Shown here: positions 3,960-7,443 of the stretch, in pieces
Layout: each line of letters opens with the position of its first letter
How positions within the stretch are numbered: position 1 is the stretch's first letter
Source: a virus
Strand: one strand, 5' to 3'
IMG/VR virus record: IMGVR_UViG_3300033997_000258
Location: 1-41,087 of that record
Length of the DNA: 41,087 bases
Notes under the pieces: generated by a model
Seen by the model: the letters and a program-made list of their open reading frames with translations, nothing else
Told to the model about the DNA's origin: nothing
Database searches by the model: none
Position numbers and translations under genes: made by a program

Positions 3960-4147
3960 GCGGCGGCGTCCTGGAGCACGGCGCGCAGCTGCTTGGCTGC
4001 AGCCAGCAGCTGGTGAGCGTGCTGCTCCGCCTCGTCGGCGGTGAGGTGCAGGCGGGCAGCGCCCATGTCTGCGATGACGCGTTCGCTGACGTGGTCAGCG
4101 GTGACTTTGATCTCTGCCGATCGGCAGCCCAGGGAAAGGGTGGCCAT
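3956..4147 (-). CDS. small early phage protein
   Basis: 63 aa, start ATG 4147, three bases after the preceding stop codon. The first half is a predicted beta segment (ATLSLGCRSAEIKVTADHVSE) and the second half a helix rich in Glu, His and Leu (LTADEAEQHAHQLLAAAKQL). No family recognised; the helix with HAHQLL could be an oligomerisation element. Second gene of the PL operon. Confidence 0.6.
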   Translation of the reverse strand: MATLSLGCRSAEIKVTADHVSERVIADMGAARLHLTADEAEQHAHQLLAAAKQLRAVLQDAAA

Positions 4148-4150
4148 GGC

Positions 4151-4267
4151 TCAGCACTCCTGCCCGAAGAGGCGCTGGCCGAAGCCGACGCCTGCGCCTA
4201 CGGCGAGGGCGCCGATGGCGTAGATCGCGATGATGAGGTGCCACAGGGGCCGTTTGCGGCGCTGCAT
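4151..4267 (-). CDS. 38-aa single-span membrane peptide, first gene of the PL operon
   Basis: A very short frame: MQRRKRPLWHLIIAIYAIGA, then LAVGAGVGFGQRLFGQEC and stop. Start ATG 4267-4265 has AGGAGA about 6 nt upstream on the minus strand. A strongly basic N-terminus followed by about 20 hydrophobic residues predicts an N-in membrane helix. It lies about 50 nt downstream of the predicted PL start and is three bases from the next gene. The strong ribosome site and tight spacing support translation; the function is unknown. Confidence 0.6.
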   Translation of the reverse strand: MQRRKRPLWHLIIAIYAIGALAVGAGVGFGQRLFGQEC

Positions 4268-4325
4268 GGAGGTCTCCTGCCGCCTTGCCCCGAGGTGGAC
4301 GGGGCTTCGTGGGCGGCGTGGAGAT

Positions 4326-4354
4326 AGTAAAGCGGCGCTTTAGGTTAAAGTCAA
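4326..4354 (-). promoter_or_regulatory. PL promoter (early-left)
   Basis: On the minus strand, -35 TTGACT (4354-4349) and -10 TTTACT (4331-4326) are separated by 17 bp. The operator at 4328-4342 fills the spacer and -10, and the operator at 4351-4365 overlaps the -35. The same arrangement, with nearly the same bases, recurs at PR (6669-6697). It points at the 38-aa gene starting at 4267. Confidence 0.75.
4328..4342. promoter_or_regulatory. repressor operator OL1
   Basis: TAAAGCGGCGCTTTA is a perfect 15-bp palindrome with a central G. It is the best match to the five-site consensus in this window (AAGC-N3-GCTT core) and sits between the -35 and -10 of PL. Confidence 0.85.
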
Positions 4355-4365
4355 GCGGTGCTTTA
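4351..4365. promoter_or_regulatory. repressor operator OL2
   Basis: TCAAGCGGTGCTTTA has the same AAGC-N3-GCTT core as the other sites. Its centre is 23 bp from that of OL1 and it covers the PL -35 hexamer. Confidence 0.8.
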
Positions 4366-4414
4366 GTCTCTTTGCAAAGAAGAGCCCTCCGTGCGTGATG
4401 GGCTGTTTCAGCCA

Positions 4415-4440
4415 AAGAAAAACCCCGCCGGAGCGGGGTC
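4415..4440 (-). terminator. intrinsic terminator of the lysogeny (cI) operon
   Basis: Inverted repeat ACCCCGC (4422-4428) / GCGGGGT (4433-4439) with a 4-base loop. On the minus strand it is followed by a T-rich run (TTTTTCTTT). It lies 40 bp beyond the stop of the gene at 4480-4767 and insulates PL from leftward cI transcription. Confidence 0.85.
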
Positions 4441-4479
4441 GGAAGAGCGAGGTGCTGCTGCCGCTGATGGGCAATCAAT

Positions 4480-4767
4480 TCACCTTTGGCCAGCCTGCTT
4501 TATTGCGGCCCGAATAGTTCCAAGAGTTCCAGTCTCATGATCGTCCGGCGGTGCTGGCTGGGGCGGATGTGCCGTGCGGGGATTCGACAACGCTTGCTGC
4601 TGCTCGGTTAACGCGTTGGCTCGACGAAGCTCCATCCGGATGTCTTGGAGAATCGGCTTAATGCCAAACACCGCGAACGGCACACAGATCCAAAGGATTG
4701 CCAACACGATGCCCACGAAAAGCATCGCCAGGCCAGCCACCCCGTACCCAAGCTCGATTCCGTTCAC
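4480..4767 (-). CDS. single-span membrane protein in the rex position
   Basis: 95 aa from GTG 4767. The frame is open further upstream to a TTG at 4836, but GTG 4767 is preceded by GGAAGAGAGG at correct spacing. The N-terminus NGIELGYG leads into one long hydrophobic segment (about residues 9-35, GVAGLAMLFVGIVLAILWIC VPFAVFG). After that come a charged helix (QDIRMELRRANALTEQQQ) and a Pro-rich, probably cytoplasmic tail. It is the last gene of the leftward operon that starts with cI, so it should be made in the lysogen. Location and topology suggest a superinfection-exclusion or abortive-infection role by analogy with lambda rexAB; no sequence family is recognised. Confidence 0.75.
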   Translation of the reverse strand: MNGIELGYGVAGLAMLFVGIVLAILWICVPFAVFGIKPILQDIRMELRRANALTEQQQALSNPRTAHPPQPAPPDDHETGTLGTIRAAIKQAGQR

Positions 4768-4863
4768 ACATGCCGCCTCTCTTCCGTTCAAGGGATTCGA
4801 CAGTAGCACATCGCCGTTAGAGACCTTAAGACGCAAAGCACCAGCCGGAGCGAACTCGTGAGT

Positions 4864-5061
4864 TCAGGGCTTGGTCGCTGAGGGAGACACTTTGGGCATC
4901 GACCGGGTCTGCGTGGGCACTTGGATGATGATCAGCTGCGGAACAGCTGGCGCCTGCGGAGTGGTGATGTTTACTGGTGCCTTCGGCACAGCACTGTTCA
5001 GCGCAAAAGCCTTAGTAGTGAGCGCCAATCCGAGACCGACGAAAGTAATCCCGACGACACA
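4864..5061 (-). other. short in-frame ORF without an ordinary start, downstream of the zinc-ribbon gene
   Basis: Directly after the TAA (5064-5062) of the zinc-ribbon gene, the same frame stays open for 65 codons to TGA 4866-4864. It reads VVGITFVGLGLALTTKAFA, then LNSAVPKAPVNITTPQ and a Pro/Thr-rich tail. This looks like a signal peptide or membrane anchor plus a secreted tail. No ATG or GTG is in frame; only ATT (5049) or TTG (5028) could start it. An ATG overlapping the TAA (TAATG) is in another frame and stops after 16 codons. It may be a frameshifted gene, a readthrough extension or an unusual start. Kept as an ORF only. Confidence 0.3.
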
Positions 5062-5937
5062 TTACTGCTTTAGCTTCGAGGGGTCGAAGCCAGATGTGTC
5101 GAATTCCCAGGCAGGCGATCCTTCTTGATAGACCTCAGCTTGAATCCTGACGACATCAGCGGATGCCATTCGCCGCACGAAGTCTGAGTAGCCTCGGATG
5201 AACAGGAGCGTCGTGGAATTGTCGCTTGGGCCAGCGGCTTCATACGTTCTCGGCTTTTCATCTCCGAACCGCACGAGCACCTTGCAGCCGGAGTAGCTCC
5301 TGCAGAGCAGCTGTCCGCGCTCGATGCTCATGATGACATCGCTTCCATGCTGTGGGTGCTTGCGGATGGTGAGCGTAGCGTGCTGCGGCCTTGAATACGG
5401 ACGATCGAACTCATGAGTATTGCTGCTCGACACTTCAGCTGTTACCGAAGCTTCGCTGGTCATTGGGTCGTCGTAGGAGCGATAGACCCATTGCTTTCCC
5501 AGATTGGCCTTCCTCACGTCTTCTTCTAGCTCGGGGATAAGCTTGGATGCTGCAGTCCCCTCAGTTGTGCCGGGGAAGGAGCCTGCCAGGTCTGTTGCTG
5601 TAAGAAGGCGAGCTTCCGCATAACGGCTAGCGTCGTTCATCTCCGCGAATAGCCGAGATTTCTTTTGCTCAGGAGCCTCACTCGGAGCAGCACCAGATGT
5701 CACTCCGGGACTACTAGCGGTGTGATCGAGCGGCGGCGAACACATGGCTACCAGAAGCACTATCGCTGCCATCAAGACAAATACAGCGCATCCGGCTTTC
5801 ATTACACCATTGGCCCCAGCACTCGGTGGAGCTGGAAGGGTCCCTTGCCTAGGCCTATTAGGGTGACCGCAATTCGGGCAAGCTTCGGCTTGGTCACTGA
5901 TCTGCCGTCCACACTCTTCACATGCGATAAGCGCCAC
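5062..5937 (-). CDS. zinc-ribbon membrane protein with exported domain (lysogenic operon)
   Basis: 291 aa from GTG 5937, giving the typical zinc-ribbon N-terminus MALIACEECG with GGGG just upstream. A TTG 39 bases earlier is a weaker choice. Residues about 6-27 hold CEECGRQ...ACPNCGHP, a four-Cys ribbon. After a Pro-rich linker comes one membrane segment (about residues 48-66, GCAVFVLMAAIVLLVAM) and then a large domain of about 210 aa that should lie outside the cytoplasm. The exported part has alternating beta-like segments with LLCRSYSGCKVLVRFGD and a C-terminal TTLLFIRGYSDFVRRM helix. The gene is 22 bp downstream of cI, so it is probably co-transcribed in the lysogen. Function unknown; a membrane sensor or exclusion factor fits the context. 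Confidence 0.8.
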   Translation of the reverse strand: MALIACEECGRQISDQAEACPNCGHPNRPRQGTLPAPPSAGANGVMKAGCAVFVLMAAIVLLVAMCSPPLDHTASSPGVTSGAAPSEAPEQKKSRLFAEMNDASRYAEARLLTATDLAGSFPGTTEGTAASKLIPELEEDVRKANLGKQWVYRSYDDPMTSEASVTAEVSSSNTHEFDRPYSRPQHATLTIRKHPQHGSDVIMSIERGQLLCRSYSGCKVLVRFGDEKPRTYEAAGPSDNSTTLLFIRGYSDFVRRMASADVVRIQAEVYQEGSPAWEFDTSGFDPSKLKQ

Positions 5938-5959
5938 CGCATCCCCCTGTTCTGATCCG

Positions 5960-6637
5960 TCAGTTGAATCTATCAATTCGATTACGCAGGTAAACCTTGC
6001 CTCCGATTACGGTGTGAGGAGGCATGGGGAATGCTGGATACAGCCCTGCGTTTGCGCTGACTACATACACGGCATCGCCTCGATCCTGGAGGGCCTTTAC
6101 TTGCTGGCCATTGCCGGTGTTGAGCAAGTAAATCCCATCACCATCGAATGCAGTGACGCCCGTGTCGACCATCAGGGATTCCCCAGGATTGATTACGGGG
6201 ATCATCGAGTCCCCACGACCGGTAACCAGTACAAGTCGCCCAGGAGGTGGGACGAACCCAACGACCGACCGTATGTAGGTTGGTGCAAAGTCCATCGCAC
6301 GCACGACGTCCGGAAAATCCTCGTTGATAGCTCCATCCCCCATGTCGGCATCTCCATCCAGCTGCTGGACGCGAACATAGCTCTGCGTGGTCGCAGGAGT
6401 GGAGACGACTGCTGCGGCCTCTCCCATCCCGAAGTGGGATAGCGGTTTGCCAGTCAGCTGAGCCAGCTTTGGAAGCTTCCGCTTGTCGACTTTGCCCGTG
6501 CGCAGCCAGCCCGACACTGCCTGCTCAGTGACACCAAAGGAATCTGCGATCCCTTTCTGGGTCAACTTGGACTCTTCAATGGCCGAACGGATGGCGGCCG
6601 CCATGGCGGAATTGTCAAGCATTGCTTGATTGTCCAT
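5960..6637 (-). CDS. cI: CI-type phage repressor (HTH plus S24 peptidase)
   Basis: 225 aa from ATG 6637 (MDNQAMLDNS); a TTG at 6652 and ATG codons at 6622 and 6604 are alternatives, none with a strong ribosome site. Residues about 27-46 form an HTH (QKGIADSFGVTEQAVSGWLR). The C-terminal half is a LexA/CI S24 domain with catalytic Ser144 in GDSMIPV and Lys181 in GQQVKAL, so RecA-stimulated autocleavage and SOS induction are expected. The usual Ala-Gly cleavage dipeptide is not obvious; a Met-Gly at about residues 99-100 is a candidate. It should bind the five AAGC-N3-GCTT operators, one of which lies within its own first codons, implying autoregulation. Confidence 0.93.
   Translation of the reverse strand: MDNQAMLDNSAMAAAIRSAIEESKLTQKGIADSFGVTEQAVSGWLRTGKVDKRKLPKLAQLTGKPLSHFGMGEAAAVVSTPATTQSYVRVQQLDGDADMGDGAINEDFPDVVRAMDFAPTYIRSVVGFVPPPGRLVLVTGRGDSMIPVINPGESLMVDTGVTAFDGDGIYLLNTGNGQQVKALQDRGDAVYVVSANAGLYPAFPMPPHTVIGGKVYLRNRIDRFN
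6615..6629. promoter_or_regulatory. repressor operator inside the start of cI (OR3-like)
   Basis: TCAAGCATTGCTTGA is a perfect 15-bp palindrome with the same AAGC-N3-GCTT core. It covers codons 3-8 of cI (from ATG 6637) and includes the alternative start ATG 6622. Its centre is 43 bp from that of the 6658-6672 site. Confidence 0.7.
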
Positions 6638-6657
6638 GGGGTGCCGAGCCAATGTAA

Positions 6658-6672
6658 GAAAGCATCGCTTGA
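6658..6672. promoter_or_regulatory. repressor operator OR2
   Basis: GAAAGCATCGCTTGA carries the AAGC-N3-GCTT core and covers the start of the PR -35 hexamer. It corresponds in position and sequence to OL2. Confidence 0.8.
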
Positions 6673-6697
6673 CTGAAGACTAAAGCGACGCTTAAGC
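6669..6697 (+). promoter_or_regulatory. PR promoter (early-right)
   Basis: -35 TTGACT (6669-6674), 17-bp spacer containing OR1, weak -10 TTAAGC (6692-6697). Transcription would begin near 6704-6705, at or next to the A of the cro-like ATG. No Shine-Dalgarno precedes that ATG, so the mRNA may be leaderless. The block matches PL base for base at most positions. Confidence 0.7.
6681..6695. promoter_or_regulatory. repressor operator OR1
   Basis: TAAAGCGACGCTTAA, near-perfect palindrome in the PR spacer. Its centre is 23 bp from that of OR2, the same distance as between OL1 and OL2. Confidence 0.85.
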
Positions 6698-6704
6698 TGG
6701 GCGC

Positions 6705-7196
6705 ATGAATCATATCGCTGCTGCCGTAGAGAAGACGGGGGCCGGCCAAGCCGGCTTGGCACGCCTGCTCGGCGTATCGCCCCAAGCAGTCAATCAATGG
6801 GTCAACGGCAATAGACCTGTTCCTTCGCGGCACGTACTCGCCATTGAGAAGGCGACCGGCGTATCGCGGCACGAACTCCGGCCTGACGTGTTTGGCCCAA
6901 GCGAAGCTTCTGATTCCCAGGAGCAGGTGCCGACGGTTGCTGATCAGATCCGGGCGGAGGTGGACATCCGGATGAGCAAGCGCGCGCTGCGGAAGAAGCT
7001 TGGCGTACCGAACGACAAGCTGCTGGCGAAGGTGCTGAAGCTGCCCATCGAGCAGGTCGAGGCTTGGCCGGAAGAGGGCGCCTTGCCGGCGCTGCCGCAG
7101 ATCCAGCGCTTGCTGGGTGTGCAGGAACAACCGCAGGCGCAGCCCGCGCCGCACGACCCCGACGAGAACCGCTACGCCCCTCTGGAGGTGGCCTGA
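6705..7196 (+). CDS. Cro/YdaS-like regulator with C-terminal extension
   Basis: 163 aa. Residues 1-60 are a YdaS/Cro-superfamily HTH (AGQAGLARLLGVSPQAVNQWVNGNRPVP), divergent from cI and first in the rightward operon, so it takes the place of Cro. After a polar linker a second helical domain follows (about residues 80-140, IRMSKRALRKKLGVPNDKLLAKVL) that looks like another small DNA-binding fold. Classic Cro proteins are 60-75 aa, so this one is more than twice as long. It probably competes with CI for the AAGC-N3-GCTT operators. No ribosome binding site is visible, consistent with a leaderless message. Confidence 0.85.
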   Translation: MNHIAAAVEKTGAGQAGLARLLGVSPQAVNQWVNGNRPVPSRHVLAIEKATGVSRHELRPDVFGPSEASDSQEQVPTVADQIRAEVDIRMSKRALRKKLGVPNDKLLAKVLKLPIEQVEAWPEEGALPALPQIQRLLGVQEQPQAQPAPHDPDENRYAPLEVA

Positions 7197-7197
7197 G

Positions 7198-7443
7198 ATG
7201 CGCGCGCTGTCCGACAAGTGGAATCCCCGGCTGTGGCTGCGCGACTGGCTGGCCAAGCCTTCGAAGAATGAGCTTCTGCAGGCGGCCCGCACCCAAGCCG
7301 GGATGCGGGCCGCGATCAAGGCATGGCACGCCAGCGAGAACGAGAAAGACGCTAAGCGTCGATCAGATGCTGAGCGGCAACTCGCAGATCGTCGCCCTCC
7401 TGCGGAGGAAGAGTCGACGCGATGTGGTTCACCAGCTCGATGA
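7198..7443 (+). CDS. small basic early protein
   Basis: 81 aa from ATG 7198, two bases after the cro-like stop, with GGAGG about 11 nt upstream. MRALSDKWNPRLWLRDWLAK is a Trp-rich amphipathic N-terminus and the rest is charged and helical (AIKAWHASENEKDAKRRSDAE). Its last 92 bases overlap, on opposite strands, the 3' end of the gene at 7352-7546, so its C-terminal third may not be under protein-level selection. No family recognised. Confidence 0.6.
   Translation: MRALSDKWNPRLWLRDWLAKPSKNELLQAARTQAGMRAAIKAWHASENEKDAKRRSDAERQLADRRPPAEEESTRCGSPAR

What the first reader, a model, noticed from the sequence alone, without database searches (positions are those of the whole stretch)
4480..5937. Rex-position lysogenic operon of two unknown membrane proteins
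Between cI and PL, on the cI strand, lie a zinc-ribbon protein with one membrane span and a large exported domain, and a 95-aa single-span protein with a cytoplasmic tail. An intrinsic terminator closes the unit. In lambda this position holds rexA and rexB, which exclude other phages. A cytoplasmic zinc ribbon joined through the membrane to an exported domain is not a layout I know from described exclusion systems.
Basis: partly seen in the sequence, partly recalled or inferred. Interest (0 to 1): 0.78.

Follow-up and report, generated by a model that had tools for sequence, protein, structure and literature searches.

The report
Prophage membrane-anchored phage-exclusion protein candidate
Beside its repressor gene, this temperate phage carries a conserved gene for a membrane-anchored protein (a zinc-binding knob inside the cell, a folded domain outside the inner membrane); its relatives sit in two genomic slots known for proteins that stop other phages from injecting DNA, so it is probably a new exclusion protein, although nothing here tests that directly.

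Summary
On the cI strand, between cI and PL, lies a 291-aa zinc-ribbon/one-TM/exported-domain protein (ZR, 5062-5937), then a 95-aa single-TM ORF (4480-4767) and a good terminator (4421-4440). Operator palindromes flank the unit, so it lies within the immunity region.

ZR is real and conserved: in eight other phages (53-84% identity) it directly follows cI and precedes a terminator and oL/PL. Against the three closest relatives dN/dS is about 0.07.

A homologous protein (zinc ribbon, TM, same exported domain) occurs downstream of cI in Pseudomonas phages, and between the tail-chaperone and tape-measure genes of Acinetobacter, Citrobacter and Pantoea prophages, the slot that holds the exclusion gene gp15 in HK97. 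The exported domain folds most like periplasmic IalB. Unrelated exported domains on the same anchor also follow phage repressors more often than chance (10 of 36 versus 0.8).

Best reading: a lysogen-expressed superinfection-exclusion protein acting at DNA entry, perhaps on the tape-measure protein. Function is inferred, not shown.

The parts
5062..5937 (-). ZR gene: 291-aa zinc ribbon (C6,C9,C20,C23) + one TM (about 48-66) + helical stalk (89-144) + IalB-like beta domain (150-286) predicted outside the inner membrane; invariant C212/C218 in the domain
   Evidence: conserved in L002-L009
5960..6637 (-). cI-like repressor (HTH_3 + Peptidase_S24), ATG at 6637; upstream gene of the unit
4480..4767 (-). 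95-aa ORF, N-terminal TM then coiled-coil-like tail; found only in this phage
4864..5061 (-). open frame of 64-65 aa starting at the ZR stop, signal/TM-like start, no standard start codon at its 5' end; status uncertain
4421..4440 (-). intrinsic terminator closing the cI-ZR unit
   Evidence: equivalent terminators in L002-L009
4328..4365 (.). oL: palindromes TAAAGCGGCGCTTTA (4328-4342) and TCAAGCGGTGCTTTA (4351-4365) overlapping PL (TTGACT-17-TTTACT, reading leftward)
6658..6695 (.). oR: palindromes at 6658-6672 and 6681-6695 between cI and the cro-like gene
6615..6629 (.). third operator-like palindrome TCAAGCATTGCTTGA inside the first codons of cI
   Evidence: kept in 7 of 8 relatives, absent only where the HTH and operators are swapped (L008)
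6705..7196 (+). divergent cro-like gene (YdaS family)

Best explanation
ZR is a prophage-expressed superinfection-exclusion protein. It is translated from the cI transcript in a lysogen (inferred). The zinc ribbon stays in the cytoplasm, a single TM anchors it in the inner membrane, and a stalk presents an IalB-like beta domain in the periplasm (predicted). There it interferes with genome entry of incoming siphophages, most plausibly by engaging the tape-measure protein or the inner-membrane entry complex, as proposed for HK97 gp15 and TP-J34 Ltp. The zinc ribbon is an anchoring, oligomerisation or partner-binding module on which different phages mount different exported domains. Shown here: gene, position, conservation, architecture by prediction, homologues in the gp15 slot. 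Inferred: expression in the lysogen, exclusion, step and target. The 95-aa ORF is an accessory private to this phage.
For: (1) Between cI and terminator/PL in 9 of 9 phages. (2) Strong purifying selection: dN/dS about 0.07 against the three closest relatives. (3) Same-architecture homologues (profile-profile 99.8%, E=5e-28) downstream of cI in Pseudomonas phages, and between tail-assembly chaperone and tape measure in Acinetobacter, Citrobacter and Pantoea prophages. (4) That slot holds gp15 in HK97, an exclusion protein predicted in the inner membrane; [quoted passage not shown] (5) Carriers mostly share one tape-measure family, phrog_2854 at E<=1e-36: 15 of 17 carriers against 4 of 29 other records, two of which carry a truncated member. 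(6) Models of two branches both give periplasmic IalB as best PDB match (3dtd). (7) Zinc-ribbon/TM proteins with unrelated exported domains follow phage repressors in 10 of 36 records, 0.8 expected.
Against: No functional data. PADLOC has no hit. IalB-like and VasI/TagO-like domains are not known to act on phages. The tape-measure association is confounded by phage relatedness, and two carriers (Marin, Microcystis phage) lack a strong phrog_2854 tape measure. The gp15 slot can host morons of other functions. The broader zinc-ribbon/TM class also sits elsewhere. ZR is not homologous to gp15 and differs in layout and size.
Confidence: 0.55

Rival explanations
1. Lysogenic-conversion factor that is not anti-phage: a periplasmic domain that changes envelope properties or stress tolerance of the lysogen.
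For: IalB-like fold; a distant prophage homologue passes Pfam VasI/TagO; the domain also occurs on plasmids and in one bacterial genome; cI operons often carry such morons (established knowledge).
Against: Does not explain the recurrence in the gp15 slot beside tape-measure genes or the shared tape-measure family.
Confidence: 0.22
2. Transmembrane sensor: the exported domain senses an envelope signal and the zinc ribbon relays it to the lysis-lysogeny decision, for example by touching cI.
For: Next to cI in 9 of 9 phages; zinc ribbon nearly invariant (dN 0 to 0.12); inside-outside layout.
Against: The same protein sits far from any repressor in Acinetobacter/Citrobacter/Pantoea prophages; L008 swapped the HTH and operators and kept ZR unchanged in design.
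Confidence: 0.1
3. Rex-like two-component abortive exclusion: ZR as sensor, the 95-aa single-TM protein as membrane effector.
For: Order cI-ZR-95 aa ORF-terminator resembles cI-rexA-rexB; the 95-aa ORF has coding-like codon use.
Against: The 95-aa ORF is absent from all 8 relatives, which keep ZR; it has one TM, where RexB has several (established knowledge); ZR is not cytoplasmic like RexA.
Confidence: 0.07

Closest known systems
HK97 gp15 superinfection-exclusion protein
   Same: Lysogen-expressed moron encoding a single-TM inner-membrane protein; homologues of ZR occupy the same slot between tail chaperone and tape measure.
   Different: gp15 is 62 aa, TM plus short tail, no zinc ribbon, no exported beta domain, no sequence similarity; ZR in this window sits beside cI instead.
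Lambda RexA/RexB (rex position)
   Same: Genes between cI and the terminator/PL on the cI strand, implying expression in the lysogen.
   Different: No family hit to Rex proteins; ZR is one-TM with an exported domain; the partner gene is not conserved.
P22 SieA and TP-J34 Ltp
   Different: No family hit links them; no zinc ribbon in either (own knowledge).
IalB (PF06776; 3dtd) and VasI/TagO (PF11319) periplasmic domains
   Same: Predicted fold of the exported domain (Foldseek E=4e-4, TM 0.55 on the target); a prophage homologue passes the Pfam VasI cut-off.
   Different: 8% sequence identity to IalB; no Pfam hit for the window domain itself; no known anti-phage role.
TcaA-type zinc-ribbon/TM/exported proteins
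   Same: Same inside-outside layout with an N-terminal zinc ribbon (weak hit).
   Different: Unrelated exported domain; chromosomal.

Membership tests
HK97-gp15-type superinfection exclusion | Gene in chaperone/tape-measure slot | tested here: met
   Met by homologues, not by the window gene itself
HK97-gp15-type superinfection exclusion | Sequence homology to gp15 (phrog_5031) | tested here: not met
   ZR has no hit to phrog_5031; 95-aa ORF versus gp15: no BLASTP alignment. Not filed as a member
HK97-gp15-type superinfection exclusion | Blocks DNA entry of other siphophages | not testable with these tools
   needs phage challenge
RexAB exclusion | Position between cI and terminator/PL on the cI strand | tested here: met
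RexAB exclusion | Conserved two-gene sensor + multi-TM channel pair | tested here: not met
   second ORF single-TM and private to this phage
IalB-like periplasmic domain | IalB fold | tested here: met
   best PDB match from two models, moderate TM-score about 0.5
IalB-like periplasmic domain | Pfam PF06776 or PF11319 match | tested here: not met
   no hit for the window protein; only a distant homologue hits VasI
Zinc-ribbon proteins (PF13248/PF13240) | Four cysteines CxxC...CxxC and profile score | tested here: met
   zinc binding itself not tested
Known anti-phage defence (PADLOC-DB 2.0.0) | Any model match | tested here: not met

The most novel reading that the evidence does not exclude
Zinc-ribbon/TM anchors form a general chassis of prophage exclusion: temperate phages of many hosts mount interchangeable exported domains on one cytoplasmic zinc-ribbon anchor and place the gene either in the repressor operon or beside the tape-measure gene, with the exported domain deciding which incoming phage is blocked at DNA entry.
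Probability: 0.3. Interest if true: 0.8.

Novelty: new variant of a known kind. Interest (0 to 1): 0.55.

Why it matters
If ZR blocks DNA entry, it adds a new fold and anchor to the short list of prophage proteins acting at the injection step, and gives a sequence signature (MALIxCxECG...CPxCG + TM) for finding many more candidates next to repressor and tape-measure genes. It would also make testable why a cytoplasmic zinc ribbon is kept almost invariant on a protein whose working domain appears to lie outside.

Tried and rejected
Tested for a conserved two-gene Rex-like pair: rejected. Compared the 95-aa ORF with HK97 gp15 (similar layout, TM then coiled coil): no alignment. Defence database: no hit. 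PDB sequence search with the family profile: only chance hits. E. coli genomes with the Citrobacter homologue: no match. GTDB scan with the protein: one zinc-ribbon-only MAG hit, taken as spurious. Sampling 379 genomes of that MAG's phylum mostly found zinc ribbons alone, plus one exported domain without the anchor in the match. Literature: no paper in the held library combines superinfection exclusion, zinc ribbon and prophage. phrog_21770 search in related phages: no match, inconclusive because no control matched.

Full report
What is there. The window is one 41,087-base virus record of a temperate siphophage: terminase, portal, major head protein, a tape-measure protein of family phrog_2854 and a tail-fibre module lie on the + strand. 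The immunity region lies at 4300-7200. A cI-like repressor with HTH and S24 domains (5960-6637, minus strand) diverges from a YdaS-family cro-like gene (6705-7196). Palindromes of the type TAAAGCNNCGCTTTA stand at oR (6658-6672, 6681-6695) and at 4328-4342 and 4351-4365. A clean intrinsic terminator (4440-4421) closes the cI-strand unit before PL.

The ZR gene. ORF 5062-5937 starts with GTG 22 nt after the cI stop. It encodes MALIACEECGRQISDQAEACPNCGH... (a four-cysteine zinc ribbon), a TM at about residues 48-66, and about 225 residues beyond it. Most relatives have K/R before the TM and little charge after it, and the outer part carries two invariant cysteines. Both fit zinc ribbon inside and domain outside, but topology is a prediction. 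Eight viral contigs carry it at 53-84% identity, always directly after a same-strand cI and always followed within about 60-110 bp by a terminator and operator-like palindromes. One of them (L008) has exchanged the repressor's HTH and operators for another specificity (CTACAG...CTGTAG) and keeps ZR. Synonymous changes are near saturation while dN is 0.09 in the closest three; the ribbon has dN 0 to 0.12 and the exported domain 0.03 to 0.4 across all eight.

The other ORFs. Between the ZR stop and the terminator the window has about 620 bp, where relatives have under about 60 bp. Codon use in both is coding-like, but the 95-aa ORF has no relative in phages, plasmids or the viral-contig pattern scan, only a weak family hit (phrog_21770). 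It is best regarded as an accessory insertion, not the partner in a conserved pair.

Distant relatives and their positions. A profile of the nine ZR proteins matches a profile of Pseudomonas-phage and Acinetobacter-type prophage proteins over the whole length, ribbon and exported domain both (99.8% probability, E=5e-28). In Pseudomonas phages D14O and Marin the gene lies downstream of cI on the cI strand, with two other genes between. In the viral contigs of L037, L043 and L062 (called Acinetobacter-type here from general resemblance; the contigs carry no host name) it lies between the tail-assembly chaperone (phrog_1749) and the tape measure. The Citrobacter and Pantoea records, annotated independently, show the same: tail tube, TAC chaperone, one small ORF, zinc-ribbon protein, tape measure. 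HK97 has gp15 in that very slot (gp12, gp13/14, gp15, gp16). [quoted passage not shown] A prophage in a Pasteurella record has a domain homologue beside its repressor, on the opposite strand and annotated as TagO. An Acinetobacter plasmid has one beside a restriction-modification system. The contigs behind L100 and L101 have a 75-aa zinc-ribbon/TM version without the domain, about 290 bp upstream of the tape-measure match.

Fold. AlphaFold models from two branches of the family (mean pLDDT 77 and 73; domain blocks mostly above 80) both give IalB as best PDB match (E=4e-4, TM 0.55 on the target; E=9e-3, TM 0.52). A distant prophage homologue passes the Pfam VasI/TagO cut-off; the window protein does not. 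The exported domain thus resembles a set of periplasmic beta domains without a known phage role.

A wider pattern. A scan for MALI[SAK]CxEC found 226 viral loci; the 80 best carry many unrelated exported domains behind the same ribbon and TM, and a few have the ribbon on what looks like an integrase. Among 36 such records outside the window's own ZR group that have a detectable repressor domain, 10 have the gene within 900 bp downstream of it on the same strand, against 0.8 expected from random placement. The null is crude (lysogenic genes cannot sit everywhere) and some records are related, so the size of the effect is approximate. L015 and L018 also follow a regulator-like ORF that these two models did not catch.

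Tape-measure association. With the window and HK97 counted in, 15 of 17 carriers of this exported domain have a strong phrog_2854 tape measure (E<=1e-36), against 4 to 5 of 29 other records, depending on whether HK97 itself (6e-45) is counted; two of those are the truncated L100/L101 type. This fits exclusion of relatives through the tape measure, but relatedness of the phages explains part of it.

Interpretation. Position and conservation make expression in the lysogen likely. The layout, the two recurrent slots and the gp15 precedent make superinfection exclusion at DNA entry the best-supported function (0.55), with the tape measure or its inner-membrane partner as the most plausible target (perhaps 0.35). 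A non-phage envelope function is the main rival. What the zinc ribbon does is open: anchoring, oligomerisation or a host partner. By sequence and fold ZR is not a member of the gp15 or Rex families; it would work like gp15.

Noticed in passing
window 6615-6629: A third operator-like palindrome (TCAAGCATTGCTTGA) lies inside the first codons of cI and is kept in all relatives with this repressor type; possibly an autoregulatory operator within the codons for MDNQAMLDN.
   Followed up: partly
L008 4218-4982 and 5885-6050: Repressor HTH and operators exchanged together for another specificity (CTACAG...CTGTAG) while the S24 domain and ZR gene are kept: a natural immunity swap.
   Followed up: partly
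L020 4001-4669 (Klebsiella phage MK416007): Zinc-ribbon protein with a tRNA_anti-like domain as a reverse-strand moron between tail genes; annotated as a hydrogenase maturation factor, probably from the ribbon alone.
   Followed up: partly
L052, L055, L056, L059, L082, L085: The same MALIxCPEC zinc ribbon is fused to what look like phage integrases without a TM.
   Followed up: no
L100, L101 at 4001-4228: 75-aa zinc-ribbon/TM protein lacking the exported domain, about 290 bp upstream of the tape-measure match; either a decayed member or a gp15-sized minimal form.
   Followed up: partly
L011 (KY697807), upstream of 5034: The annotated gene start appears to cut off the zinc ribbon and TM that tblastn finds upstream.
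   Followed up: no
L026 4001-4750 and 4921-5673: Two tandem zinc-ribbon/TM genes with different ribbons about 1.7 kb downstream of an S24 repressor.
   Followed up: no
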